From a virus, in IMG/VR virus record IMGVR_UViG_3300035703_000214, positions 1-37,723 of that record: a stretch of DNA of 37,723 nucleotides; one strand, given 5' to 3'. The notes beneath the pieces were generated by a model. That model saw nothing but the letters and a program-made list of their open reading frames with translations, was not told the origin of the DNA and did not search any database. This document shows positions 5,208 through 32,212 of the stretch, one piece after another (within the stretch, counting starts at the first letter, position 1; every line of letters starts with the position of its first letter). Made by a program: the position numbers and the translations under genes.

Positions 5208-6848
5208 ATGGCTCAATCTCTAGACATCTACATTGACACAACCAATGGAAACCTAGTGGCCGCTGGGTCGGCTAGGAACGGGACGCTCCCCACCCTTACT
5301 CGCAACGACTCCTACAACCTTCGAGTTCGCTTGCAAGAGAGAGATACCGAGGGATTCCTTCGAGATTTAGATTTAACTGGTTCTTCAATTAAGCTGGGCA
5401 TCGGTGGGATTGATGGCGACCCAACGGACGGACAATTTCGGCTTGTTCTTAATAGCATTACATCATCGGCCATCTCTTTCAACGCAACGACTACCCAAGT
5501 CTATAACGCCATTTCTGCAATCGCTAGTTCTGGCGTTGGAGTAACGACTTATGGTAATGAAAATTTTGCCTACCTCATCACTTCCGCAACCCTCAACACG
5601 GCTATGTCTTTTGGGGGCGATGCCTTTACCCTTTTTCCAACTAGCTCGGTTCTTGTAAGTACTCGCAGATTTCCAACCGCATCAGTTGCCGCCCAACAAA
5701 TCATTCGTCTTGTTCGCAACCCCGCCGTGTATTCAGATACATTCGTTGCATCTCCTACCGCTGGGGTTGTGTCGCTTACAAAAATTCAAGATGGCTCTTC
5801 TACGCAGAATGAAACCTATGATTTGGCCGTTGGTTCTGACGCAGAGGGGGGCTCGGTTGTTCTTAACTTTGGTGCTAACTCAACAACAGCCATTCCAGTT
5901 GGTGCAACTGCGGCTAGCTTCCAAGAAGCCCTCACATCAATCACGGCGATAAGCAACGGAAACATAAGCGTTGATGTTGGAAACAATGCGGGGAACTATT
6001 CGATCTCTTTTGTTCGCAACCTTGGCCTAACCAACATCACAACTGCCCTCACTCTGGATGCGAGCGGAGTTATCTTCGGCAACTTCTTGCAGACAACCGT
6101 GACGATGGCAACTGCTGAACTGGACGAACTATTTGCCGAAGACGGAACAGATACAATCTCGCCCAAACTTGAGGTTGAGCTAACACAAAATGGCAATCCC
6201 AAGACGGTTCTGCAAACCGATGTAACCGTTCGCCGTGATTTGATTACGAGTGGTAGTGCCGTTCCCGCCGCCCAAGCCAGCTACCTTACTGCCGCCGAGA
6301 GTTTCGCCGCCTTTGTTCGCAACTCAACAACTGGTGTAAATTCAACAGCCAGAGGGCTTGCTGATTCTTCTGCCGTAACCTCTGTTAATTTCGGGGCAAG
6401 GACTCTAAACAATAGTGCTGGAACACAAGTAGTTTCCTATGGTGCTGGGTTGGCCTTTGCAAATACCCCTATGGGATTCTATGGGACAACGGTTACAGCC
6501 CAACCCGCAAACATCAATGTCGTTTCTGGTTTAATCAATACTGGCCTTATTGCAAATGGGACAACCTACGGAGTGCTTCCGCAATCTCCTCGGACGCTCA
6601 CCACGACTGCCTCAATTAACTTCGGCCTAGTGAACTCAAACTCAACAGTATCAAGCCAAGTCACAGTCACAGGATGCACCCTCAACGACATCGTGCTTCT
6701 CGGCCTACCCCCTGCCGTGTGCCAAGGATTATCGTTCTTTGGTCATGTTACAACAGGAAGCGTGGTGGAGGTCGATGCGGTCAATGCGACCAACGGCAAC
6801 ATCACCCAATCCTCGCAAACCTACCGAATCACCGTCATCGGTTATTAG
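5208..6848 (+). CDS. Tail fibre-like protein, 546 aa
   Basis: The beta-rich, Ser/Thr/Asn-rich protein has low Lys content. The N-terminal 150 residues resemble phage baseplate attachment domains (LVRNDSYNLRVRL-type strands). The middle carries two similar beta segments with an FxxAL..I..I pattern (about residues 90-115 and 225-260), suggesting internal duplication. The C-terminal 80 residues (INFGLVNSNSTVSSQ through a terminal TYRITVIGY) match a beta-sandwich domain common at the C-termini of environmental phage fibre proteins. It probably forms a host-contacting fibre or tip. The start is set by the cassette ending at 5207. Confidence 0.65.
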   Translation: MAQSLDIYIDTTNGNLVAAGSARNGTLPTLTRNDSYNLRVRLQERDTEGFLRDLDLTGSSIKLGIGGIDGDPTDGQFRLVLNSITSSAISFNATTTQVYNAISAIASSGVGVTTYGNENFAYLITSATLNTAMSFGGDAFTLFPTSSVLVSTRRFPTASVAAQQIIRLVRNPAVYSDTFVASPTAGVVSLTKIQDGSSTQNETYDLAVGSDAEGGSVVLNFGANSTTAIPVGATAASFQEALTSITAISNGNISVDVGNNAGNYSISFVRNLGLTNITTALTLDASGVIFGNFLQTTVTMATAELDELFAEDGTDTISPKLEVELTQNGNPKTVLQTDVTVRRDLITSGSAVPAAQASYLTAAESFAAFVRNSTTGVNSTARGLADSSAVTSVNFGARTLNNSAGTQVVSYGAGLAFANTPMGFYGTTVTAQPANINVVSGLINTGLIANGTTYGVLPQSPRTLTTTASINFGLVNSNSTVSSQVTVTGCTLNDIVLLGLPPAVCQGLSFFGHVTTGSVVEVDAVNATNGNITQSSQTYRITVIGY

Positions 6849-15116: not shown

Positions 15117-15379
15117 TCGCTATGGTAGAGGCAGAGCAGTTCGAGTTGCCTTTTATGAGGACAACGCATCCTCAAAAGACGGAAGGCCACGACCAGAACG
15201 CTCGCATCCTAGCCCACTTGCAATCGGGTCGCACACTCACGGCTCTGGAAGCGCTGGATTGGTTCAAGTGCTTCCGGTTGGCAAGCCGAGTGTGTGATTT
15301 GCGGAAGGCTGGTTACGATGTGCAGAAGCGAACAGTCAAAACCAACAGCGGAAAGAGTGTTGCGGAGTATTATTTATGA
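15113..15379 (+). CDS. Helix-turn-helix domain protein (HTH_39-like), 88 aa
   Basis: Residues 28-88 fit the small winged-helix family found in phages: ARILAHLQSGRTLTALEALD, then a C-F-R-L-A-S-R-V-x-D-L-R-K-A-G-Y recognition region, then a beta wing ending EYYL. Such proteins are commonly uncharacterised phage regulators. Overlaps ATGA at both ends place it in one operon with the initiator. Confidence 0.7.
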   Translation: MIAMVEAEQFELPFMRTTHPQKTEGHDQNARILAHLQSGRTLTALEALDWFKCFRLASRVCDLRKAGYDVQKRTVKTNSGKSVAEYYL

Positions 15380-15978
15380 GTTTTGGCGGCGATAGCTCAA
15401 CAGTAGAGCTTCCCCTATTCCAAGGGGAGGATGGCGGTGCAATTCCGACCTCGCCGCTCCAACTTTTGCTTCGTACTATTCGGCACGATACTGCATTTAA
15501 TTGTTATTGTAATTGGCACTATCTTGGGGGCAACGGATTTCTTGCGTCGTTTAATTTTGGAGCATATTTTAATGGACAAATACTTGGAGCAATATCTTAT
15601 GGAATACCAAACGCAAGAAACATAAAAGGAATCTACAACGAAAAAACACAATCAGAATTCTTTGAACTTACTAGGCTTGCACTATCCGAACTATGCCCGA
15701 AATTTTCAGAAAGCCGAGTTATCTCTGTTTCAATGAAGATGCTAAAGAAACTGAATCCTTTATTGCGTGGAGTAATTACATACGCCGACACCAAGCAGAA
15801 CCATACGGGAACAATATATAAAGCAAGTAATTTCACATATATTGGGCTTACAGCACAAAAAACAGACTTATTTGTTGATGGAAAAAAGATTGGCAAGTTA
15901 AAAGGGGTAAAGTACAGCGAAATAAAAGGAGAGTGGAGAAAGAGATCGAGAAAACATTTATTCGTTAGGTACTTTTAG
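15376..15978 (+). CDS. Mom-like DNA modification protein (GNAT-related), 200 aa
   Basis: The order of motifs matches phage Mom-family proteins: H-Y near residue 48, GAYFNGQILGAISYG (62-76), ELTRLAL (about 97-103), a run SVSMKMLKKLNPLLRGVITYADTKQ in segments (127-147), and N-H-T-G-T-I-Y-K-A-S-N-F-x-Y-I-G (about 148-163). Mom alters adenine in phage DNA and protects against restriction. From about 15480 on the gene is much AT-richer than its neighbours, suggesting later acquisition. The first 30 residues look unrelated and may come from the upstream host sequence. Confidence 0.75.
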   Translation: MSFGGDSSTVELPLFQGEDGGAIPTSPLQLLLRTIRHDTAFNCYCNWHYLGGNGFLASFNFGAYFNGQILGAISYGIPNARNIKGIYNEKTQSEFFELTRLALSELCPKFSESRVISVSMKMLKKLNPLLRGVITYADTKQNHTGTIYKASNFTYIGLTAQKTDLFVDGKKIGKLKGVKYSEIKGEWRKRSRKHLFVRYF

Positions 15979-18560: not shown

Positions 18561-19742
18561 ATGAAATACCCCTGCTTGCTTACCAAAAAAATCAACGAAA
18601 TTTCTTCGGCAAAATATAACCCAAGAAAAATTACAGACGAGGCGATGGGTCGATTGACCAAGAGCCTAGCGGAGTTCGGAAACATCCAGCCGATCACTTG
18701 GAATGTGCGAACTGGGAATGTGGTTGGAGGCCACCAGAGGCTCAAGGTCTATAAGGCGATGGGCAAAACCGAGGTGGATGTTTGGGCGGTCGATCTGGAT
18801 GAGCAGAAGGAGAAGGCGGCCAACATCGCCCTCAACAAGTTAAGCGGAGAATTCGATATGCCGATGCTTAAAGACATCCTAGAGGAAATCGATACTGGCG
18901 ATCTAGATATGGAAATTACTGGGTTCGGGATGGATGAGATTGCATTGATGATGGAGGACGCACACCCAGAAGTCACCGAGGACGAAGTGCCAGAAGTTCC
19001 AGTTGATGCGATTACCAAGCTGGGCGACTTGTGGCTTCTTGGGGAACACCGGGTGCTTTGTGGCGACTCAACAAGCGAGGCAGATGTGTCTAGGCTTATG
19101 AATGGCGAGAAAGCAGATATGGTTTTCACCGATCCTCCTTATGGCGTTAATTATGATGGAGGACACGCAACAGATAAGCGTAGGGAAAAACTTAAAAACG
19201 ATAACTCCACGCTAATCTACGATGACTCTGTTCCAAATATGTTTAGGCACTCGAAAGATGATGCCGCACTATATCTTTGGTTTGCGGATAAGTCTGGATA
19301 TAAAATTCTACAAGCTCTCCAAGCAAATAACTATGTGATTCGCAGTTGGCTCATTTGGAATAAAAATCAGGCTCAATTCGGAGCTATTGGATCGCAATAT
19401 AAACAGAAGCACGAACCCTGTTTATATTGTTTCAAAAAAGGAAAAAGTCCATATTGGAACGGCCCGAACAATGAGGTTTCTGTTTGGGACGAAAAGCGTT
19501 CAAGAATAAACGAGTTTCACCCGACGCAAAAGCCGGTAGAACTATCTGCAAGGGCATTGGCAAATTCTTGCCCAGCAAGCGGGCTGGTTCTCGATCTATT
19601 TTTGGGTTCTGGTGCAACTCTTATTGGTGCAGAGCAAACCAAACGCAAATGCTATGGAATGGAAATCAGCCCCAACTACTGCGATGTGATTGTGAAGCGA
19701 TGGGAAAACCTTACTGGCAAAAAGGCCACGCTTGCCAAATGA
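18561..19742 (+). CDS. ParB-like domain fused to a DNA (adenine or cytosine-N4) methyltransferase, 393 aa
   Basis: Residues 8-85 form a ParB/sulfiredoxin-like N-domain (YNPRKITDEAMGRLTKSL, then NVVGGHQRLKVYKAM, the GGHQR box). From residue 150 the methyltransferase follows: LLGEHRVLCGDS, the catalytic TDPPYG at 190-195 with Asp191, and the SAM-binding LDLFLGSGATLIGAE with FLGSG at 347-351. The DPPY motif precedes the SAM-binding motif, so it is class beta. It methylates amino groups of A or C in a sequence-dependent way and may protect phage DNA. Such fusions occur next to terminase genes in many phages. Confidence 0.8.
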   Translation: MKYPCLLTKKINEISSAKYNPRKITDEAMGRLTKSLAEFGNIQPITWNVRTGNVVGGHQRLKVYKAMGKTEVDVWAVDLDEQKEKAANIALNKLSGEFDMPMLKDILEEIDTGDLDMEITGFGMDEIALMMEDAHPEVTEDEVPEVPVDAITKLGDLWLLGEHRVLCGDSTSEADVSRLMNGEKADMVFTDPPYGVNYDGGHATDKRREKLKNDNSTLIYDDSVPNMFRHSKDDAALYLWFADKSGYKILQALQANNYVIRSWLIWNKNQAQFGAIGSQYKQKHEPCLYCFKKGKSPYWNGPNNEVSVWDEKRSRINEFHPTQKPVELSARALANSCPASGLVLDLFLGSGATLIGAEQTKRKCYGMEISPNYCDVIVKRWENLTGKKATLAK

Positions 19743-20571: not shown

Positions 20572-20873
20572 AACGCTCTCCACTTAAACGCAAAACCCCT
20601 CTCAAACGAGGCGGGAAACTACGCCGAGTATCTGCAAAGAGAAAAGGCCAGAACGAAGTCTATAAAGATGTTCGAGAGAAGTTCCTAACCAACAATCCAG
20701 TCTGCCAAGTATGCAAGTGCAAGATGGCGAGCCAAGTTCATCACAGGCGAGGAAGGTTCGGGGATAGGCTCAATGAAGTAGAGTTTTTCTTGGCGGTGTG
20801 CTTTGAGTGCCATCATCAAATCCATATGAACCCAGCTTGGGCATACGCAAAAGATTATCTGGTCAAGAGATGA
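20568..20873 (+). CDS. HNH endonuclease, 101 aa
   Basis: Basic N-terminus (KRSPLKRKTPLKRGGKLRR), then CQVCKCKM, VHHRRGR, and CFECHHQIH: a Cys-x2-Cys, His-His, Cys-x2-Cys-His-x3-His arrangement of the HNH (beta-beta-alpha metal) fold with zinc-binding cysteines. HNH proteins beside the terminase are required for DNA cutting or cos cleavage in many phages. Adjacency to the large subunit supports a packaging role. ATGA overlaps on both sides. Confidence 0.8.
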   Translation: MKRSPLKRKTPLKRGGKLRRVSAKRKGQNEVYKDVREKFLTNNPVCQVCKCKMASQVHHRRGRFGDRLNEVEFFLAVCFECHHQIHMNPAWAYAKDYLVKR

Positions 20874-22660
20874 ACCAGATCGATGAGGCCAAGAACTTTG
20901 CTCGTCTTTTGTTTGAGCCAAGAGAGCAACTCTCGATTCCAGAATGGGCAGAGAAAAACCTCACCCTTTCAGCTAGGGTTACAAACATACCCGGAGCGTA
21001 TTCGACAACCCTCACGCCCTATGTTCGTGAACCCCTAGAGGCTTTTGGCGATGATTCGATTCGGCGAGTGGTGCTGGTATGGGGAGCACAAACAAGCAAG
21101 ACCACAACGATTCTAGCTGGCCTAGCGTATCGAATAGCAGAGCGACCTTGCCCCGCCTTGTGGGTGATGCCAAGCGAGCATTTGGCTAGATCATTCACGG
21201 AAACTAGGTGGTTGCCAATGATTGACGATTGCCCAGCCCTAGCCAAAGAGAAGCCAGACAACACCGACAAAATCAAAATCCTAGAGCAACACTTTAAGCG
21301 ATGCTCGGTCTGGTGGGCTGGCACAAGCCCATCGGCTCTTTCTAGTCGCTCGATTGCGTTGCTTTGTATGGATGAGGTGGACAAGTTCCCAGAGCAAGCG
21401 GGTTCGGGACGAGAAGCTAACCCAGTTCAATTAGCAGAGGCACGAGTCAGCACCTACCCAAACCATCTCATCATAGCAACCAGCACACCCACAACTGCCG
21501 ACTCAATCATTTGGAGCGAGTGGCAAAAAGGGGATATGCGTTTCTACTTCGTGCCTTGCCCTCATTGTGGGCATAAGCAGAAGCTAGTATGGGGGCAAGT
21601 GAAGTGGGACGAGGCCGCCAAGATTGAAGATGGGGTTTATGATTTTAAGCTGGTTAAATCCTCGACTTACTACGAGTGCGAGGGGTGCAAAGAAAAGATT
21701 ACAGACGGACAGAAAACCAAGATGCTTCGAGAGGGCGAGTGGAGGGCAACCAATCTAAAGGGCGAACCAGCCAGACGCTCCTACCACCTCAACGGCCTAT
21801 ATGCCCCTTGGGTATCCTTCGGAAGTTTGGCGGTGAAGTTTCTACAAGATAAGCACAATGGAATCATAGGGCTTCAAGACTTTGTGAACCGAGTTCTAGC
21901 CGAGCCTTGGATGGAACACGAATCGGAGAAGATGGAAATTGTGGCTGGCGATTACAAGATGGGCGAGGTTAGGGTGAATGAGAAACTGATTATGGCTTGC
22001 GACATCCAAGAGGCGGGGGGCTTTCACGCTTGGTGCGTTGTTAGGGCTTGGGATATTGAGGGCAGATCACGGCTTGTGTGGGCTGGGAGGCTAGAGACTT
22101 GGGGAGACATCCAAGCCAAGGCAGAGGAGTTTGGGGTTGAGTCAAAATGCGTTTTCTGCGACTCGGGCGATCAAACCAGAGATGTTTATTATAATTGTTG
22201 TAAGAACGGATGGATGGCCTTGGTCGGTTCAGATCGCACTAGCTTCTCTGAAATTGTAGGGGAGCAAAAACTACAACGCCCCTACGCTCGAATTGCCAAC
22301 GGCGACCCATTCAGCGGTAAGGCAGTTCAATCAAGGGCGGGGTGGAAGTGGAAGTTCTGCCCAGTTTGGCGATGGTCGAACCCATCCATCAAAGACATCC
22401 TATCTAACCTAATCAAAGAACCCGGCTACATCGCTCTCGACACCCCCGATGTTTGGCGAGTGCATATCGAGGCAGAGGTGAAGGTGCGGGTAAAAAATCC
22501 TATGACTGGCAGGGAAAGGCTTGTGTGGAAGCAAGTCGGGAAGCATAATCACTTAATGGATTGTGAATGTATGAACATCGTTGGGGCGGCCTTGTATGGG
22601 CGGTTGAAAGTCTCGCCCGCAAGTTTGACAGAAAGTGAGTTTGATAATGGCGAAGGGTGA
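20870..22660 (+). CDS. Terminase large subunit, GpA family, 596 aa
   Basis: The start is the ATG at 20870 in the HNH stop; the longer frame overlaps the HNH gene. The N-terminus (residues 17-60, E-Q-L-S-I-P-E-W-A-E-K-N-L) is typical of GpA. Walker A-like G-A-Q-T-S-K-T lies at 72-78 and Walker B LCMDEVD with Asp168/Glu169. A zinc-ribbon-like CPHCGH...CEGC pair sits at about 230-265 and the nuclease domain after residue 330 (FCDSGDQTRDVYY and others). It translocates and cuts DNA into the prohead together with the small subunit. Confidence 0.85.
   Translation: MNQIDEAKNFARLLFEPREQLSIPEWAEKNLTLSARVTNIPGAYSTTLTPYVREPLEAFGDDSIRRVVLVWGAQTSKTTTILAGLAYRIAERPCPALWVMPSEHLARSFTETRWLPMIDDCPALAKEKPDNTDKIKILEQHFKRCSVWWAGTSPSALSSRSIALLCMDEVDKFPEQAGSGREANPVQLAEARVSTYPNHLIIATSTPTTADSIIWSEWQKGDMRFYFVPCPHCGHKQKLVWGQVKWDEAAKIEDGVYDFKLVKSSTYYECEGCKEKITDGQKTKMLREGEWRATNLKGEPARRSYHLNGLYAPWVSFGSLAVKFLQDKHNGIIGLQDFVNRVLAEPWMEHESEKMEIVAGDYKMGEVRVNEKLIMACDIQEAGGFHAWCVVRAWDIEGRSRLVWAGRLETWGDIQAKAEEFGVESKCVFCDSGDQTRDVYYNCCKNGWMALVGSDRTSFSEIVGEQKLQRPYARIANGDPFSGKAVQSRAGWKWKFCPVWRWSNPSIKDILSNLIKEPGYIALDTPDVWRVHIEAEVKVRVKNPMTGRERLVWKQVGKHNHLMDCECMNIVGAALYGRLKVSPASLTESEFDNGEG
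22625..22646 (+). promoter_or_regulatory. Late gene-start cassette (TTGACAGAAAGTGAG)
   Basis: TTGACA lies 22 bases before the ATG at 22647, inside the end of the terminase gene. The GTGAG is a poor Shine-Dalgarno. Same spacing as other cassettes. Confidence 0.35.
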
Positions 22661-22883
22661 TTTCATTGGGCTACCCCTTGCCACCCTAACTTCTCTTCGT
22701 GATAAGTATATCACTTGTCTTGAGGCGATAGCGGTGGCGGGTTCAAGCTATTCGATAGCTGGTCGTTCGTTTTCAAGAGCGAATCTCGGTGAGGTGAGAG
22801 ATACGATTATGGAGCTAACCCTAGCCATTCAGCAAGCGACTGGCGCTAGGGTTCGCACAACCTACGCAAACTTCGGCTCGTGA
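22647..22883 (+). CDS. Head-tail connector, gpW-like, 78 aa
   Basis: The start is taken at ATG 22647, not the upstream GTG 22635. The product has gpW-like features: a helix with L-x-x-L-R-D-K-Y, then a beta hairpin (SYSIAGRSFSRANLGEVRD) and a helix with V-R-x-x-I-M-E-L. It lies between the terminase and the portal as in lambda (A-W-B). gpW joins the filled head to the tail. The stop overlaps the portal GTG. Confidence 0.7.
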   Translation: MAKGDFIGLPLATLTSLRDKYITCLEAIAVAGSSYSIAGRSFSRANLGEVRDTIMELTLAIQQATGARVRTTYANFGS

Positions 22884-25800
22884 AAAAAGCCTCTCTCAAT
22901 CTGATCGACAAGGCGATTGCCTTTGTAAATCCTCAAGGGGCAGTTGATAGGCTTGTTGCTCGTCAAAGGATTAAGAACTTCGAGTATGATGCGGTAAAGT
23001 ATTCAAGGCAACGCAAGGGGCCGAGCCAGTTGTCGGGTGCGGAAGATTATCGTTCTAATTATGACCGAGTAGAGTTGATGAAAAGGGCGAGGGATTTGGC
23101 AGAGAATGTTGGCCTTGTTCGCTCCATCCTTATGAAGTTTGCCAGCCATACCGCCGCAAACATTTCCTACCAAGCCAGAACCGAGAACCCCGAAGTCAAT
23201 ACCGAGGTCGAGGCATATTGGGCAGAGTGGTGGGACAAGTGCGACATTTCCACAAGGCATACTGGTTCGACACTTATGCAGGTGGCTATAATGTCGATGT
23301 TGCGAGATGGCGATTTTTTGTTTTGCCTCGTGCGTGATTCTGATGGCAATCTAAAAATACAAGGCATTGAGGGTGATAGACTTGGAGACCCATTTAAAGT
23401 CTATACTAGCTCGGAGTTAATTGGTGGAATCCATATCGATCAACGGACTGGGGCACCAACGGCCTACGACATTTATAGCCGAAGCATTGGCGATATGTAC
23501 ACCTATCAAGTAACGATTCCCGCAAGCCAAGCCTTCCACTTATTCGACCCACTCCGCATTGACCAGTACCGAGGAATCTCCGCTTTCCATACCGCAATCA
23601 ATGACGCAACGGATATTCACGAAATCGTAGGCTTCGAGAAGATGTCGGCCAAGGTTGCTTCTAGCCAGAGTGCAATCATAAAGAGGAACAATAACAATGC
23701 TTCCGATCTCTCCTCGCTCACAAATGACCAAGACATTAACGGAAGCCCAATCAAGCTCGAAGCGATTGAGTCTGGTAAAATCTCCTACCTAGAACCGGGT
23801 GAGGACATTGTTTTCCCCGATGGGCCGAGTCGTCCCTCTGGTGCATTCGCAGAGTTCCACAAGATTCTACTCCGCAACATTTGCTTGGGCGTTGGCATCC
23901 CTTACAGCTTCGCCGTAGACCCTTCCGCTATGAGTGGCCCGACAGCCCGACTAGAGATGCAACAAGCAGGGCGAACCTTCCGTAGATACCAGAAGCTACT
24001 AGATGATAAAGTTCTTCGCCCAATTAAGAACATCGTTATTGCCGATGGGGTTGCAAGGGGATTGATCGAGAACAATGTTGGGAGCAGAACGACTAGGGGC
24101 ATTTTCAACTTCGGGGCGAATGTCTCGATTGATTTGGGCAGAGAATCCGCTTCCGCAATCTCCGAGTTCAAGACTGGCCTTCGCACCGCCGCCGACATTT
24201 ACGCCGAGCGAGGCCAAGACTTTGAAAGTGCTATGCGACAAAGGGCTATTGAGGCCAAGCTAGTTAAGGATTTGGCTGGGGAATACGAAGTTTCAGCAGA
24301 TACAATTTCCGACATCGCCGCAGAGGGATTGACCAGAGATTCACAAAAAGCACAAGCAACCCCAACCGAAGGCGAGCAAACACCCGCTGGACAACCTTCG
24401 GACGAGGATATGCTTGGTGGTGCTTCGCTCAATGGGGCACAAGTCGCATCCCTTATCAATGTTATCAATGCCGTGGCTATGGGTGCGGTTTCCAAGGAGG
24501 GTGCAGTATCTATCATCACCGCCGCCTTCCCGACCATCAGCCCAGACCAAGCAAGGGCAATCATCGCTGGGGTCAACATTGGAACAACCATTCCGACCAC
24601 CAAGGAGGAGAAACAGCAAATTGGGAAAGACCAAGGCGGGGATACTTCGGGAGGCTCAACACCCCCAGCCCCAGAACCTACAACGCCCCCGACCGCCCCC
24701 GCTGGCACTTCTCAAAAAAAAAGTAATTTAGAGATTCTGGAAAGCCTCGACCCCGCATCGATTAAGATGCTGATTGAGGGGATGATGGGCGGGATTGAAT
24801 TGGCAAAATATGATGGGATTGATTTTACCCCACCACAAGGGGCTAGGGATGCCGCTAAAAGAGCCTTGGATGTGCGGGAGGGCAAACCATCCAGCCAACG
24901 AGGAATGACCCCAGTAGGCATCGCTAGGGCGAGGGATTTGCAAAATGGGGTTAAGATGTCGCCCGACACTATCCGAAGAATGAAAGCCTTTTTTGATAGG
25001 CACGAAGTAGACAAGAAGGGTGCAACTTGGGATGAGCAGGGCAAAGGATGGCAAGCGTGGCACGGATGGGGTGGCGATGCTGGGTACGCTTGGGCAAGGA
25101 AAGTAGTTGGACAGATGGAAGCAAGAGACAAGAAAACAGAGTTCGTTGCTGGCAGAGATTGTGGACAAGATGAGGGTGGAACTTTCGGGCCAGATAATCA
25201 ATGTGCGGTAGGCTACGGCAGACCGCCACTCAAGGGAGGCTATACCCCAACCCGACCCGGTGGGAAATTCCCCAAGGATTACAAAAGGCCGACAGAGCAA
25301 AAGAAAGAAACGCCTAAAGGGAAACCATTACCGCCAAAGCCTCTCCCACCAAAGCCGTTGCCCCCAAAGCCACCCCTTCCAAAGCCAGAGCAAACCAAAC
25401 AGCAAAAAGAGATTAGCGATATTTCTGAAAAATTTAGAAAGGATGGAGTCTTAAATTCTCTTCCAGATAATTTAGAAAGAGTAAAAGAAATAGAATCATC
25501 CTATAATAATCTAAAGGCCAAAGGATATGCAATCCCGCCACCAGAGTTTCTTCTGCAAGGAAACCTAGAAGAAAATTATGGGGCGAGCTACGCTGGAAGC
25601 TATGCAGTTGCAACAACAATGGCGAACGGAAGCCCAGCTATTATATTTGATAAAAAATTCAACGCAGAAGGCAACTCCCTAAAAGACGAGTTAAATAATA
25701 ATGTTAAGATAAAGTGGCTTGCCACGAATGACTTATTTGCTCACGAGTATGGACACAATGCCCATATGAAATTACTAGGAGAAGAAAAATCAGCACAGTA

Positions 25801-25978
25801 TATAAAACAAAAACTAACAGATAATGAGACTAGGGTTGCTTCAGAGGTTAGCGATTACGCAAAAACTAACCCGCTAGAATTTGTGGCCGAGACATTTGCT
25901 GGTCACGTGAATGGTAAAAAATATAGCAAAAGCGTATATAATCTTTATAAATCCTACGGAGGCCCGAAACTAAAATGA
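22880..25978 (+). CDS. Portal protein fused to extra domains and a C-terminal zinc metallopeptidase-like domain, 1032 aa
   Basis: Residues 1-490 are a lambda gpB-type portal (MKKASLNLIDKAIAFVNPQG; R-D-G-D-F-L-F; the DPSAMSGPTARLEMQQAGR segment). Beyond normal portal length come a domain (about 648-752) with FTPPQGARDAAKRALDVREG and ARARDLQNGVKMSPDTIRR, known as a common phage add-on, and a CGQDEGGTFGPDNQCAVG segment. A Pro-rich repeat linker (812-838) leads to a metallopeptidase-like domain with HEYGH at 955-959 and EFVAE at 1000-1004 (third ligand candidate). The final ~190 codons are AT-rich. It may be processed or be a single very long portal; GTG start, GTGA overlap. Confidence 0.75.
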   Translation: MKKASLNLIDKAIAFVNPQGAVDRLVARQRIKNFEYDAVKYSRQRKGPSQLSGAEDYRSNYDRVELMKRARDLAENVGLVRSILMKFASHTAANISYQARTENPEVNTEVEAYWAEWWDKCDISTRHTGSTLMQVAIMSMLRDGDFLFCLVRDSDGNLKIQGIEGDRLGDPFKVYTSSELIGGIHIDQRTGAPTAYDIYSRSIGDMYTYQVTIPASQAFHLFDPLRIDQYRGISAFHTAINDATDIHEIVGFEKMSAKVASSQSAIIKRNNNNASDLSSLTNDQDINGSPIKLEAIESGKISYLEPGEDIVFPDGPSRPSGAFAEFHKILLRNICLGVGIPYSFAVDPSAMSGPTARLEMQQAGRTFRRYQKLLDDKVLRPIKNIVIADGVARGLIENNVGSRTTRGIFNFGANVSIDLGRESASAISEFKTGLRTAADIYAERGQDFESAMRQRAIEAKLVKDLAGEYEVSADTISDIAAEGLTRDSQKAQATPTEGEQTPAGQPSDEDMLGGASLNGAQVASLINVINAVAMGAVSKEGAVSIITAAFPTISPDQARAIIAGVNIGTTIPTTKEEKQQIGKDQGGDTSGGSTPPAPEPTTPPTAPAGTSQKKSNLEILESLDPASIKMLIEGMMGGIELAKYDGIDFTPPQGARDAAKRALDVREGKPSSQRGMTPVGIARARDLQNGVKMSPDTIRRMKAFFDRHEVDKKGATWDEQGKGWQAWHGWGGDAGYAWARKVVGQMEARDKKTEFVAGRDCGQDEGGTFGPDNQCAVGYGRPPLKGGYTPTRPGGKFPKDYKRPTEQKKETPKGKPLPPKPLPPKPLPPKPPLPKPEQTKQQKEISDISEKFRKDGVLNSLPDNLERVKEIESSYNNLKAKGYAIPPPEFLLQGNLEENYGASYAGSYAVATTMANGSPAIIFDKKFNAEGNSLKDELNNNVKIKWLATNDLFAHEYGHNAHMKLLGEEKSAQYIKQKLTDNETRVASEVSDYAKTNPLEFVAETFAGHVNGKKYSKSVYNLYKSYGGPKLK

Positions 25979-26859
25979 CCTACAATAAAGAAGATTTCGA
26001 TAAAGAAAAATATGACAAGGCGATGGATATATATATTAGAACTCTTTTCAATGGAAAAGATATTCCATCATTGGATGATGCGGAAACTAAAAAAGAACTA
26101 GCAGAACCAGCCTCTTGCCCAATCGCAACCCAAGACATCAAAACAAATCTAGCCAATAGGCAGACAGCGGTTGATGATGCGAACTACGGCCCAGCCAATC
26201 CGAACGAACCCAACGAGGACTACTGGAAGGACAAGGCAGACGAGTTCCAAGGCGATGTAGCAACGGCCAAGAAAATGCTTTGCGGTAATTGTGCGGCCTT
26301 CGACCAGAGGAGCAAAGTTCTAGGGTGCATTAAGAAGGGCATCGGAGAGGACGCAAACGAAGTGGCTATTGGTGGCGATCTAGGTTACTGCGAGATATTT
26401 GATTTTAAGTGTGCGGCTAAAAGGACTTGTGACGCTTGGATTGTTGGCGGGCCGATTACAGACAAGAAAGAAGAACTAGCCCGACCAGTCTCCCAAACCC
26501 CTGCTCCTCCCAAGGAACGAATCAAAGGCTCAAAGGAGAACCCCAAAGGCACGGCATCCACAAGGAGCAAGGCTGGCGACATAGAGATTTCAGAGCAGAA
26601 CGAAGAAGCCCTCAAGAACAAGATTGCCGAGTTCAAGGACAAGCACCCATCAAGGAAAGCCCCCACCCTTGGAGCATTGAAGAAAGTGTTTAGAAGGGGG
26701 GCGGGTGCGTTCTCTACCAGCTTTAGGCCAACGATTACCGGGGGGAAGCCCAACTCACGCAACGCTTGGGCTATGGCAAGGGTGAACAAGTTTCTCAAGA
26801 TGGCTGGCGGAGGCGAGGTTAAGAAGTCATACCGAGCGGCAGACGGCGATCTCCTTTGA
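25975..26859 (+). CDS. Phage head-module protein with Cys cluster and DUF5824-like C-terminus, 294 aa
   Basis: The N-terminal 45 residues are AT-rich in sequence and unlike the rest. Residues 45-100 (CPIATQDIKTNLANRQ, then DANYGPANPNEPNEDYW) and the Cys cluster (CGNCAAFDQ at about 103, then YCEIFDFKCA and TCDAW) form a likely metal-binding module common in environmental phages. The C-terminal 80 residues (RKAPTLGALKKVFRRGAGAF, then WAMARVNKFLK) resemble DUF5824, found in phage head genes. The place between portal and protease suggests a minor head protein. ATGA overlap at the start. Confidence 0.6.
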   Translation: MTYNKEDFDKEKYDKAMDIYIRTLFNGKDIPSLDDAETKKELAEPASCPIATQDIKTNLANRQTAVDDANYGPANPNEPNEDYWKDKADEFQGDVATAKKMLCGNCAAFDQRSKVLGCIKKGIGEDANEVAIGGDLGYCEIFDFKCAAKRTCDAWIVGGPITDKKEELARPVSQTPAPPKERIKGSKENPKGTASTRSKAGDIEISEQNEEALKNKIAEFKDKHPSRKAPTLGALKKVFRRGAGAFSTSFRPTITGGKPNSRNAWAMARVNKFLKMAGGGEVKKSYRAADGDLL

Positions 26860-26875: not shown

Positions 26876-27943
26876 ATGCCTTTACCCCTACCTTCCGCAG
26901 ACGAATCAGAGCAAGACTTTGTATCCCGCTTTATGGGTGACGAGCAAGCTATCAGCGACTTTCCAGACGAACAACAAAGGGCGGCGGTTGCCTATTCTAC
27001 TTATAGGGATGAGGAGATGGAGGAAATGGAGCTAGGCGGGGTGAGCATTTTGGAGGTGGGAGAGGCTAAAGGACACGACCTTTTCGTGGATAAAACAAGC
27101 CTAGAGACCGCCCTAAAAATTATGCAGAAAGCCAAGAATGGCGTGAAAATTAAGATGAATCACGGCTCTGGTTTGGAGGCAGTTTGCGGGTTCGCCAGAA
27201 ACCCCCGCATTGAGGGAGACAAGCTGGTTGCCGACCTTCGCCTTCTCCGCAACTCTCCCCACTACGGCCTAATCAAAGAGATGGCCTCCGAAGCCCCCGA
27301 CCAGTTTGGAATTTCCCTAGCCTTTGTGAATGAGTCCGAGACGATTGATGGCAAGGATTACATTCGCCCCCAGAGCATCGCCTCTGCTGATTTAGTTTCC
27401 AGCCCAGCCGCCACGAATGGATTATTCGAGGAGATGGTGAAGTTTATGGAAAAACTCGGTTATGTGCAGGGAGGCAAGAGCATCCCAGCCGTAGCCAAAG
27501 AAGCCGTGGAGGAAGCTCCACTTGACAAAAAGGACAAAACCAATATGGAAAACACAGATTACAAAAAAGATATGGACGAAATTAAGGTTCGTCTCTCTGC
27601 CTTGGAAGAGGCGATGAAACCCAAGGATGAGGAAAAGAAAGAAGAGATGGCCTCGGAAGCTCCCAAGATCGTCATCGAAAAAGAAGATGAAGATGAAAAA
27701 GAGGAGACCAAGGAAGAGATGAGCGAAGTGGTGAAGAAAGTTCTCACCGAGTTCGGCATTAAGCCCATCTCTGCTTCGCCCGTGGTTGAAGCCCCTGCGA
27801 AGGTTGAACCCAAAACTTTTGAAGCACTCGTGGCCGCCCATAGCGACTACTCCACTTCAAAGCTCAAGGCTATGCAAGCCGTGATGCTGTCTAACCCCAA
27901 GGAATATAGCGAGGCTCTGTCTCGTGGTATTACCAAACTCTAA
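26876..27943 (+). CDS. Prohead serine protease with C-terminal scaffold (lambda C/Nu3-like fusion), 355 aa
   Basis: Residues 17-45 hold a short motif common in phage proteins (FPDEQQRAAVAYSTYRDEE). The protease core follows: His96 in MNHGSGLEAVCGF, Ser147 in FGISLAF and Asp172 in SADLVSSPAA, a likely catalytic triad of a prohead-protease type. The C-terminal part (from residue 224) is acidic and coiled-coil (KKEEMASEAPKIVIEKEDED), the kind of scaffold that shapes the prohead. An in-frame ATG at 27545 with its own leader could produce the scaffold alone. Confidence 0.75.
   Translation: MPLPLPSADESEQDFVSRFMGDEQAISDFPDEQQRAAVAYSTYRDEEMEEMELGGVSILEVGEAKGHDLFVDKTSLETALKIMQKAKNGVKIKMNHGSGLEAVCGFARNPRIEGDKLVADLRLLRNSPHYGLIKEMASEAPDQFGISLAFVNESETIDGKDYIRPQSIASADLVSSPAATNGLFEEMVKFMEKLGYVQGGKSIPAVAKEAVEEAPLDKKDKTNMENTDYKKDMDEIKVRLSALEEAMKPKDEEKKEEMASEAPKIVIEKEDEDEKEETKEEMSEVVKKVLTEFGIKPISASPVVEAPAKVEPKTFEALVAAHSDYSTSKLKAMQAVMLSNPKEYSEALSRGITKL
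27522..27544 (+). promoter_or_regulatory. Late gene-start cassette within the protease gene (TTGACAAAAAGGAC)
   Basis: TTGACA at 27522 is followed by AAAAAGGAC and an in-frame ATG 23 bases later, as in intergenic copies. It marks an internal start. Confidence 0.45.
27545..27943 (+). CDS. Nested scaffold protein (Nu3-like), about 132 aa
   Basis: Initiation at ATG 27545, with AAGGA upstream, would yield the acidic, coiled-coil C-terminal half of the protease gene (MENTDYKKDMDEIKVRLSAL). In lambda, Nu3 scaffold is made the same way from within gene C. The start cassette and the domain boundary coincide at residue 224. Confidence 0.5.
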   Translation: MENTDYKKDMDEIKVRLSALEEAMKPKDEEKKEEMASEAPKIVIEKEDEDEKEETKEEMSEVVKKVLTEFGIKPISASPVVEAPAKVEPKTFEALVAAHSDYSTSKLKAMQAVMLSNPKEYSEALSRGITKL

Positions 27944-28361: not shown

Positions 28362-29324
28362 ATGAGCTTTATTTCTGGTGGCACGACAATTCGTGCAGAC
28401 ATTAACCAAGCCTTGATCGAAGCCCCCGCAGAGATCGGTTTGATCGGTGCGGAAGTTCTCCCTCTCTTGCCCGTTCCGGCAAAGAGCGGAACTTACCTCA
28501 AAGTGCAGACGGCTGATGCCGCTCTGTTAGATGCTGATGCGGCGAAGCGTTCGGCTGGTTCTGAATACGCTCGTGCGGCTCGGAAATTCACTTCCGATAC
28601 CTACGATTGTATCGAGACTGGCTTGGAAGAGTTGCTCGACGATTCCTTCCGTGCTGATGCTAATCGCTTCTTCCAAATCGAAGCCGAAACAGCGAGGTTC
28701 TTGCTCCGACAAGTTAAGCTCTCCCACGAAAAGCGGGTGGCTGATTTGTTGTTCGCAACAACGACTCCCTTCACCACGGCTGATTTAAGCCCCACGGCTA
28801 ACTACACCGAAGCTAACTTGGCAACCATCAACGCCCCTGCGGACGTTGCGGCTGGCAAATTGGCTCTCAATCGTTTGGGTTATGCGGCCAATGCGGTGAT
28901 TATGTCGGCCAATGTGTACGAGCGAGTTCGTCGTACCACCCTCCTACAAAACCAATTCTACGGAGTTGTGTCGAATACTGGTGGTCGTCTCCTAGACGAA
29001 GCACAGATTGCCGAAGCGTTCGGTGTGGATAAAGTCTACATCGGTCGTGCGGCCATCAACTCTGCTAACAAGAACAAGCCTTACTCTGGTTCGTTCATCG
29101 TTCCAGACACCAAGATCGTTGTTGCCAATGTTTCGACTGGTCAGTTCACCGCTGGTGGATTGGGTCGCACCTTGGTCTGGTCGGAAGATGCTCCCGGTGG
29201 TTTCGTCTCCGAGAGCTATCGTGACGAGGCTCGTCGCTCCAATGTTCTCCGTGTTCGTATGAACACAGCCGAGAAAGTCATTGATGCGAACGCCGCCGTC
29301 CGTATCACCACGACCTACAGCTAA
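28362..29324 (+). CDS. Major capsid protein, 320 aa
   Basis: Typical HK97-fold capsid features by pattern: N-terminal arm (INQALIEAPAEIGLIGAEVL) with K-S-G-T-Y, a long helix (LLRQVKLSHEKRVADLLFA), a P-domain region and a C-terminal E-S-Y-R-D-E segment (GGFVSESYRDEARRSNVLRV). It follows decoration and scaffold and precedes a strong terminator, as expected for the most abundant gene. It forms the icosahedral shell. Confidence 0.8.
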   Translation: MSFISGGTTIRADINQALIEAPAEIGLIGAEVLPLLPVPAKSGTYLKVQTADAALLDADAAKRSAGSEYARAARKFTSDTYDCIETGLEELLDDSFRADANRFFQIEAETARFLLRQVKLSHEKRVADLLFATTTPFTTADLSPTANYTEANLATINAPADVAAGKLALNRLGYAANAVIMSANVYERVRRTTLLQNQFYGVVSNTGGRLLDEAQIAEAFGVDKVYIGRAAINSANKNKPYSGSFIVPDTKIVVANVSTGQFTAGGLGRTLVWSEDAPGGFVSESYRDEARRSNVLRVRMNTAEKVIDANAAVRITTTYS

Positions 29325-30562: not shown

Positions 30563-32212
30563 ATGAAACACGAAATCTCACTCTATCTCATAGCTGGCAA
30601 TGAAGAAGAATACATTGAGCGTTGCCTCAAATCGTTCTCAATCGCAAAAGAAATGGTTGTTTGTATTTCTAGGGGGTCAGCTACGCCCGACAAGACCGAG
30701 GAAATTGCCAAAGGATTGGGGGCGAAGATCGTTCACTACCAGAATAAAAGAACTGATTGGAATCACATAGATGACTTTGCCACGGCAAGGAACACGGCTC
30801 TTGAGGCTTGCTCAAGCGAGTGGTGTTTATGGGTCGATGCTGACGATGTAATGGCCGAGGATGGGGCGAAGGTTGTCGAGGAGGCTATTGACCTTGCCAT
30901 TCAAAAAGACGCTCACCTAGTGGCGTTAAAATACAATGTGGACAATGCTGGACTTATTCCCCTCCGAGAAGAAATTTCCAAGAGGGGCACTTGTAGCTGG
31001 AAGAACCGAGTTCACGAAATGCTGGTTTGCAAAGAGCCAAACAAGACGATTGGCGTGGATAAGATTTTCAGAATCCATAAGCCTCACGGATACAAGCCAA
31101 GGAGTGCAGAGAGGAACTTGAACATCTTGGCCGACACGCTTGCCCCAGCCGCCAACTCCCTTTACTACCAAGCCCAAGAGTATTTCTTGTCTGGGCAGAT
31201 TGAAAAGTGCATTGATTCAAGTATGCGAGCCTTGGCATTCCCAGAGCTAGAGGACACGCTTCGCTACGATGTGCTTTGCAACTTGGGTAGGGTAGTTCCA
31301 GAAAATGAGAGGCTTGCTTATCTTGGACAAGCCGTAGCCCTGCAACCCGATAGGCGAGAGGCTCATTTCTATATCGCAAATCATTGGTCGGGCAAGGGAA
31401 GCTGGATAAAGGCTTATGGGGCAGTTCGTTCTTGTCTGACCCTGCATCGCCCCAAAGCTCACTACTGGAATCTGGTCGAGGCAATCTACAACTGGCAAGC
31501 GATGGACTTATACGAGACGGCTTCGGTGTGCGTTGGAGAAACTGCCGAGGCTGAAAAGATTAAGAAGATGCGACCAGCACCAAAGATTAGCATCGTCCAC
31601 GCTACAAGGGGTAGGCCACAGATTGCTTGGCAGAGGCGATGGATGTGGCTTTCTTTGGCCGAGAAGCCCCTAGAGATTGAGTGGCTATTTATGGTCGATC
31701 ATAACGACCCAACCGACTACACCCCCCACCAAGCCATTAGGTGCAATCCGGGCGGGATGATTAACGCTTGGAACGCAGGGGCAAAAATAGCCAAAGGGGA
31801 CATTGTTATTCAAATGAGCGATGACTGGACACCACCCCGCCATTGGGATGCCCTAATTTCGACCGCTATTGGGGATACAACGCAAGAGAAAGTGCTGGCA
31901 GTATCAGATGGGCTACGGCAAGACAAGCTCCTATGTATGGCGATTTTAACGCAATCTAGGCTGAAGAAGCAAGGGCATCTATTCCACCCCGACTATCAAG
32001 AGTCAGATGGCATCTATTCAGACAATGAGTTCACAGATAGAGCCTATGCAGAACAAGCCGTAGTTGAGGCTAGACATATCCAATTCAAGCACGATAACCC
32101 TATGTTTAATGGCGGCCAACCAGACGAACAGCTAAAGAACCACAACAAACCAGAATTCTACGAGAAAGGAAAAGCGATTTATGAAAAACGCAAAGCAAAT
32201 AATTGGATGTAG
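30563..32212 (+). CDS. Two-domain glycosyltransferase with TPR-like middle, 549 aa
   Basis: N-terminal GT-A domain: SLYLIAGNEEEYIERCLKSF and a DxD-like DADD (92-95). The middle (about 205-310) is helical with TPR spacing (AQEYFLSGQIEKCIDSSMRA, then GQAVALQPDRREAHFYIAN). The C-terminal second GT-A domain starts near residue 338 (ISIVHATRGRPQIAW) and has MSDDW (Asp420/421). Family 2 enzymes transfer sugars from nucleotide donors to glycans or proteins. No membrane anchor; cytosolic. It opens the sugar cassette. Confidence 0.75.
   Translation: MKHEISLYLIAGNEEEYIERCLKSFSIAKEMVVCISRGSATPDKTEEIAKGLGAKIVHYQNKRTDWNHIDDFATARNTALEACSSEWCLWVDADDVMAEDGAKVVEEAIDLAIQKDAHLVALKYNVDNAGLIPLREEISKRGTCSWKNRVHEMLVCKEPNKTIGVDKIFRIHKPHGYKPRSAERNLNILADTLAPAANSLYYQAQEYFLSGQIEKCIDSSMRALAFPELEDTLRYDVLCNLGRVVPENERLAYLGQAVALQPDRREAHFYIANHWSGKGSWIKAYGAVRSCLTLHRPKAHYWNLVEAIYNWQAMDLYETASVCVGETAEAEKIKKMRPAPKISIVHATRGRPQIAWQRRWMWLSLAEKPLEIEWLFMVDHNDPTDYTPHQAIRCNPGGMINAWNAGAKIAKGDIVIQMSDDWTPPRHWDALISTAIGDTTQEKVLAVSDGLRQDKLLCMAILTQSRLKKQGHLFHPDYQESDGIYSDNEFTDRAYAEQAVVEARHIQFKHDNPMFNGGQPDEQLKNHNKPEFYEKGKAIYEKRKANNWM

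What the first reader, a model, noticed from the sequence alone, without database searches (positions are those of the whole stretch)
22880..25978. Portal protein fused to a zinc metallopeptidase-like domain through a proline-rich linker
One continuous 1032-codon frame joins a lambda-type portal (about 490 residues), an intermediate phage domain, a Pro-rich linker of repeated P-L-P-P-K units, and a C-terminal domain with HEYGH and a downstream EFVAE. Phage portals are usually near 500 residues. An ejected or maturation protease carried by the portal would be unusual. The motif spacing (41 residues between HExxH and EFVAE) fits metallopeptidases of the gluzincin kind.
Basis: partly seen in the sequence, partly recalled or inferred. 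Interest (0 to 1): 0.75.

Follow-up and report, generated by a model that had tools for sequence, protein, structure and literature searches.

The report
Phage portal carrying swappable enzyme cargo
A phage's DNA-entry ring protein carries a zinc-protease domain at its tail end that close relatives replace with other enzymes, each marked by the same short peptide tag and usually followed by its own small partner protein, which suggests the phage loads its shell with exchangeable weapons for the bacterium it infects.

Summary
The fusion is real: one open 1032-codon frame joins a lambda-type portal, a PHROG_2859 domain, a Pro-rich linker and a zincin (AlphaFold pLDDT 92; best PDB fold a zinc metallopeptidase; motif residues conserved in 24 homologues). 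Independent contigs repeat it.

A maturation protease is unlikely. Portals 77-99% identical to this one end in four zincin types, ADP-ribosyltransferases, other cargos, or nothing. Cargos move between portals (zincin dS 0.00 against portal dS 0.45). A flexible tag, CG-x4-GxF-x3-NxC(A/S), precedes every cargo, and also marks cargos on other portal families and a prohead protease. C-terminal cargos are followed by a class-specific small ORF; in the window it overlaps the stop (ATGA) and forms the first 40 residues of the next head gene. Cargo and leader diverge together (Mantel r 0.88), independently of the portal (-0.04).

Best reading: a head-borne polymorphic effector with a cognate inhibitor, working like MuF toxins but carried by the portal. 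Ejection, toxicity and inhibition are inferred. Portal-effector fusions are already in print; I found no report of the tag or of the leader.

The parts
22880..24319 (+). lambda-type portal (residues 1-480)
   Evidence: PF05136 E 2e-55, PHROG_21
24320..24799 (+). linker region after the portal (residues 481-640); in relatives the alternative entry site for cargos begins at residue 480
24800..25135 (+). PHROG_2859 domain (residues 641-752), helical, ending in the junction 'MEARDKK'
   Evidence: PHROG_2859 E 1e-24, model
25157..25207 (+). tag DCGQDEGGTFGPDNQCA (residues 760-776) that precedes the cargo
25316..25393 (+). Pro-rich linker with PLPPK repeats
25400..25978 (+). zincin-like metallopeptidase domain (cargo, class A) and stop codon; HEYGH 25742-25756, EFVAE 25877-25891
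25975..26094 (+). 40-residue leader specific to class A cargo, start codon overlapping the cargo stop (ATGA); N-terminus of the next head gene
26095..26859 (+). rest of the downstream gene (residues 41-294): Cys-rich part similar to proteins annotated as high potential iron-sulfur protein, and DUF5824-like C-terminus; continuous with the portal in cargo-free relatives
26876..27943 (+). probable prohead protease with scaffold-like tail (by motif and position only; no family hit)
20807..22660 (+). terminase large subunit (gene context)
   Evidence: PF05876 E 5e-64
28362..29324 (+). major head protein (gene context)
   Evidence: PHROG_1005 E 9e-32

Best explanation
The C-terminus of this portal is a loading dock for exchangeable effector cassettes. 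Shown from sequence: a cassette (tag, linker, enzyme, stop, restart, cognate leader) sits between two parts that form one continuous protein in cargo-free relatives; enzymes of several kinds use the dock; cassettes move between portals by recombination; enzyme and leader travel together. Inferred: since portal C-termini lie inside the head, about 12 enzyme copies are built into each particle; they are freed in or near the flexible tag, most likely by the prohead protease, and enter the next cell with the DNA, where the zincin cleaves a host protein (takeover or anti-defence). The co-translated leader keeps the enzyme inactive in the cell that makes the particles.
For: Polymorphic C-termini on portals 77-99% identical: 4 zincin types, ARTs, others, or none. 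Recombination: cargo dS 0.00/0.05/0.02 against portal dS 0.45/0.67/0.90. Cargo-free relatives read straight through the cassette site. Tags equal cargos in number, 58 of 61 by the strict pattern and the other 3 with variants. The same tag sits on HK97-type portals, another lambda-type portal and an S78 prohead protease, i.e. head-interior proteins. Class-specific next ORF: zincin A 60/61, zincin D 24/24, ART1 17/17. Payload-leader Mantel r 0.88 against portal-leader -0.04. Zincin D keeps its partner in unrelated phages without this portal. Active-site residues conserved, purifying selection. Precedents: T4 Alt is packaged and injected, and portal fusions to PBECR and 2H domains are read as delivered effectors (PMC5512222); MuF toxins have neutralising immunity proteins (PMC11699363).
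Against: No virion proteomics, no toxicity, no substrate. Portals are not themselves known to be ejected, so release is required and no cleavage site is known. Leaders of about 30-40 aa are very small for immunity proteins, and most are fused to a head gene, which also fits a docking role. Cargos lying inside the frame (coil, zincin C, NTase-like, ParB-like) have no partner. No host is known.
Confidence: 0.66

Rival explanations
1. The zincin is a head maturation or self-processing protease: it cuts the portal, neighbouring head proteins or tagged polyproteins, as proposed for metallopeptidases in polyvalent proteins.
For: Iyer 2017 proposes processing of multidomain phage proteins by zincins (PMC5512222); the enzyme sits on a head protein next to tags.
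Against: Near-identical portals carry an ART, another domain or nothing in its place while the rest of the head genes stay the same; a separate candidate prohead protease follows in this phage. Tags occur without any zincin (ART-only proteins).
Confidence: 0.12
2. The leader is a docking peptide, not an inhibitor: it re-attaches the downstream head protein to the portal by binding the cargo that split the two.
For: In cargo-free relatives the downstream part is covalently part of the portal; zincin A leaders are fused to it in 57 of 60 cases.
Against: Stand-alone leaders of 38-54 aa occur for zincin A and ART1, and zincin D partners are always separate, 82-86 aa, including cases where the downstream part is already inside the portal and phages without this portal.
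Confidence: 0.2
3. The cargo stays on the portal and acts in the particle or in the producing cell (for example against rival phages or late host defences) and is never delivered.
For: Portals are not known to be ejected; the enzyme is made late, with head proteins.
Against: The tag puts the same kinds of cargo on several head-interior proteins, as in known injected effectors; a free-standing late enzyme would need no head carrier.
Confidence: 0.15
4. Assembly chimera or decaying insertion.
For: Sharp G+C drop inside the ORF.
Against: Same junction in independent contigs, purifying selection, and the same low third-position G+C in all cargo proteins measured.
Confidence: 0.01

Closest known systems
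MuF polymorphic toxins of temperate phages (Jamet 2017, PMC5576092; Bxa and Apk2, PMC11699363)
   Same: Conserved head protein with variable C-terminal enzymes including metallopeptidases and ARTs; most toxin genes followed by a small ORF, shown to be immunity proteins for Bxa and Apk2
   Different: Carrier here is the portal itself, with no MuF domain found; a shared tag before each cargo; leader mostly fused to the next head gene; no lysogeny gene or prophage relative found
Polyvalent proteins (Iyer 2017, PMC5512222; Iyer 2022, PMC9503650)
   Same: Multidomain phage proteins near the packaging genes with zincin, ART, 2H and other domains; portal fusions to PBECR, 2H, Nudix and ART domains already reported
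   Different: Those works do not, in the passages read, describe a common tag, cognate leaders, or many cargo classes swapping on one portal lineage
Phage T4 Alt
   Same: Enzyme packaged in the head and injected with the DNA (PMC5512222)
   Different: A separate protein, an ADP-ribosyltransferase, not fused to the portal
Portal-zincin ORF of Halorubrum tailed virus BLv36 (OQ850970, annotated hypothetical)
   Same: Mu-type portal (PF06074) joined to a C-terminal zincin with HEVGH; next ORF overlaps and holds a PHROG_2859 domain and a weak MuF match
   Different: Another portal family, an archaeal virus; the strict tag is absent
MuF-portal fusions of Microbacterium phages (PMC7302621)
   Same: Portal gene extended at its end by another head protein; some related phages have VIP2-like ART on MuF
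   Different: No zincin, tag or leader reported in the passages read

Membership tests
Lambda-type portal proteins (PF05136) | Match to the portal family above its curated cut-off | tested here: met
   188.7 bits against 32.9, residues 55-371
Zincin-like metallopeptidases | HExxH on a helix with a downstream Glu helix, zincin fold | tested here: met
   Conserved motifs, model with helices 123-137 and 169-181 carrying them, PDB match 4l7a. No Pfam family above its cut-off
Zincin-like metallopeptidases | Zinc binding and peptidase activity | not testable with these tools
   Needs protein
Gluzincins | Third zinc ligand is a glutamate | tested here: inconclusive
   Both Glu of EFVxE are invariant; ligand geometry was not examined
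MuF toxins | N-terminal MuF domain | tested here: not met
   No MuF match in the 1032-aa protein or in the next gene
MuF toxins | Encoded by a temperate phage | tested here: inconclusive
   No integrase or repressor among the ORFs scanned; no portal relative in 84,980 genomes; many ORFs have no match and the record may be partial
Polymorphic toxin systems | Constant N-terminal part with variable C-terminal enzyme domains | tested here: met
Polymorphic toxin systems | Specific immunity gene directly downstream | tested here: inconclusive
   A class-specific small ORF or leader is there; neutralisation untested
Polymorphic toxin systems | Toxicity of the C-terminal domain | not testable with these tools
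   Needs expression
Polyvalent proteins | Several unrelated domains in one protein encoded by a phage near its packaging genes | tested here: met
   Portal, PHROG_2859 and zincin in one ORF after the terminase; some relatives have two different cargos

The most novel reading that the evidence does not exclude
The CG-x4-GxF-x3-NxC(A/S) peptide is a general, undescribed cargo signal of tailed phages: a packaging or cleavage tag that marks effector domains on several portal families, on prohead proteases and in chains of leader-tag-effector ORFs between portal and protease, with each effector held off by the leader encoded directly after it.
Probability: 0.35. Interest if true: 0.87.

Novelty: new variant of a known kind. 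Interest (0 to 1): 0.74.

Why it matters
If right, one short sequence tag would help reveal which proteins phages carry in their heads, a question now answered one virion at a time. Many uncharacterised proteases, ADP-ribosyltransferases and other enzymes, often with a matching candidate inhibitor, could be read straight from metagenomes. It would also show that the portal, an essential ring, tolerates large swappable additions.

Tried and rejected
Assembly artefact: rejected by independent contigs and purifying selection. Maturation protease: disfavoured by cargo swapping. Host from prophages: the portal alignment against GTDB genomes gave no relative. tblastn of the bare tag against isolated phages gave no match; the query is very short, so this says little. 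Six regions of isolated phages with the PHROG_2859 domain or a related zincin had no strict tag. PHROG_2859 + tag model: no significant PDB fold match. PDB sequence search with the single zincin: nothing useful; with the profile, 4l7a only weakly (E 0.4). Prohead protease identity of 26876-27943: no family hit.

Full report
THE OBSERVATION. Window 22880-25978 (+) is one open frame of 1032 codons with a GTG start. Residues 1-480 are a lambda-type portal (PF05136, E 2e-55; PHROG_21). Residues 643-770 match PHROG_2859, a domain of unknown function that also occurs in head genes of isolated phages. A linker with PLPPK repeats follows, then a 192-residue domain with HEYGH (955-959) and EFVAE (1000-1004), 40 residues apart. 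G+C at third codon positions drops from 0.53 in the portal to 0.31 in the last domain.

THE DOMAIN. Twenty-four aligned domains, the others 38-98% identical to the window's, keep both histidines, the glutamate between them and both glutamates of EFVxE. AlphaFold2 gives pLDDT 92.3 and pTM 0.88. The best match among solved structures is 4l7a, a putative zinc metallopeptidase (E 3.6e-4, prob 1.00); in the viral library the top matches include MuF-like and minor capsid proteins. Pfam matches stay below their cut-offs (Reprolysin_5, ATLF). dN/dS in the pairs measured is 0.02-0.13. It is a zincin under purifying selection; catalysis was not tested.

POLYMORPHISM. The scan of IMG/VR found 214 relatives of the portal, of which the best 80 were kept. 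With the loci their portals are 77-99% identical to the window's, yet what follows differs. Of 61 distinct complete proteins (window included), 25 carry this zincin (class A), 6 a zincin D, 2 a zincin B and 2 a zincin C (one protein has both B and C), 8 have ADP-ribosyltransferase-like domains of three kinds, others a coiled coil, ParB-like, nucleotidyltransferase-like or unknown domain, and 14 have none. The ART label for the two main kinds rests on Pfam ADPrib_exo_Tox (best member 5e-5), PDB profile hits that are all ARTs or ART effectors (best E 0.008) and PHROG_832 (0.025). The third ART kind and the ParB, nucleotidyltransferase, JAB and coil labels are by eye or from very weak matches. 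Cargo moves between portals: three pairs have zincin dS 0.00, 0.05 and 0.02 while their portals differ by dS 0.45, 0.67 and 0.90. In 14 cargo proteins measured, third-position G+C is 0.25-0.39 in the cargo against 0.45-0.57 in the portal.

CASSETTE BOUNDARIES. In cargo-free relatives the portal reads '...EARDKKQLAEPASCPIATQ...' straight into what is here the separate gene 25975-26859. In the window a cassette lies between 'EARDKK' and 'ELAEPASC': tag, linker, zincin, stop, restart codon and a 40-residue leader. Stop and restart overlap as ATGA (25975-25978). A second entry site lies after portal residue 479.

THE TAG. Each cargo is preceded by CG-x4-GxF-x3-NxC(A/S) or the shorter CGxGxGGFxxGNxC(A/S). 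Tags and cargos agree in number in 58 of 61 proteins by the strict pattern, cargo-free proteins having none; the other three carry slight variants. In loci fetched without use of the tag, 76 of 2021 ORFs have it, 75 of them in this head-gene family and the last a truncated zincin A ORF (L140), against 0 in residue shuffles. The tag region is modelled with pLDDT below 50, as expected of a flexible stretch. What it does is unknown.

THE PARTNER. The ORF after each C-terminal cargo begins with a sequence specific to that cargo class: zincin A 60 of 61, zincin D 24 of 24, ART1 17 of 17, ART2 7 of 9 (no next ORF readable in the rest), zincin B 2 of 2. Cargos inside the frame have none. Leaders are fused to the next head gene or stand alone (zincin A 57 and 3; ART1 8 and 9; zincin D all alone, 82-86 aa). 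Among 21 proteins with portals at least 85% identical to the window's, payload and leader distances correlate (r 0.88, p 5e-4), but portal and leader do not (r -0.04), nor payload and portal (r -0.02). Zincin D keeps a similar partner in tagged phages without this portal, where the zincin is 33-42% identical to the window-type ones (L298-L301); one of those partners was in the profile, so those E-values are not independent, but the alignment shows shared positions. Partner profiles hit almost only directly after their own cargo: the two zincin A exceptions are one contig fetched twice with the partner at its very start, and the four ART1 exceptions are not significant. The loci were fetched mostly by portal or cargo, so orphan partners elsewhere would be missed.

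MECHANISM. Shown: fusion, fold, exchange, tag, partner. From established knowledge: portal C-termini lie on the inner side of the head and the portal has 12 copies (general knowledge, not tested here); T4 Alt is packaged and injected (PMC5512222); the MuF toxins Bxa and Apk2 have neutralising immunity proteins (PMC11699363). Inferred: release from the portal, delivery, a host protein as substrate, inhibition by the leader. I put 0.66 on effector delivery with a cognate partner; the inhibitor role of the leader is its weaker half, docking being the rival.

RELATION TO KNOWN SYSTEMS. It works like a polymorphic toxin with immunity. It is not a MuF toxin, as no MuF domain was found. No lysogeny gene was seen in the ORFs scanned; a tail sheath match points to a contractile tail. 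Portal fusions to PBECR, 2H, Nudix and ART domains are in print (PMC5512222, PMC9503650), so a portal-effector fusion as such is known. A cultured haloarchaeal virus, BLv36, has a portal-zincin fusion annotated as hypothetical. Seven paper searches found no description of the tag, of portal-zincin polymorphism or of partner leaders fused to head genes; the library lacks most subscription journals. Hence 'new variant of a known kind', with the tag as the part that could prove to be more.

Noticed in passing
L240 (minus strand) and L201: Runs of overlapping ORFs, each made of a short leader, the tag SR(S/A)LNPCGQVAGGLFGPGNTCA and a different enzyme-like domain (ART by Pfam, zincin D, 2H-like by eye), lying between an HK97-type portal and a prohead protease.
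   Followed up: partly
L238:2433-9677 (-): An HK97-type portal of 2415 aa with five tags, each followed by an unidentified domain; one looks GNAT-like by eye.
   Followed up: partly
L307:875-4020 (Halorubrum tailed virus BLv36, OQ850970 21115-24260): A Mu-type portal fused to a zincin in a cultured archaeal virus, annotated as hypothetical; a Cys pair with Gly-Gly in the linker recalls the tag but does not fit it.
   Followed up: partly
L142-L150, ORF overlapping the end of distant zincin ORFs: A recurrent Cys-rich 58-100 aa ORF (C..C..F....C.AFP.GIP....DHR..YPGD) directly after distant zincin ORFs; the one from L142 matches PHROG_33375, function unknown. A candidate partner of another zincin class.
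   Followed up: partly
L016, L200 (gene after the portal) and L036 (second ORF): The gene after the portal can itself end in a tag and a cargo (ART-like or JAB-like by eye), so the head region has a further docking site.
   Followed up: no
window 5208-6848: Tail sheath match (PHROG_2839, E 5.5e-8), pointing to a contractile tail.
   Followed up: no
window 15376-15978 and 18561-19742: Mom-like DNA modification protein (PHROG_1384, E 1e-35) and a ParB-like/DNA methyltransferase protein (PHROG_498, E 1e-128): likely anti-restriction DNA modification.
   Followed up: no
window 30563-32212: A two-part glycosyltransferase-like protein downstream of the head genes (PHROG_13126 and PHROG_14945).
   Followed up: no
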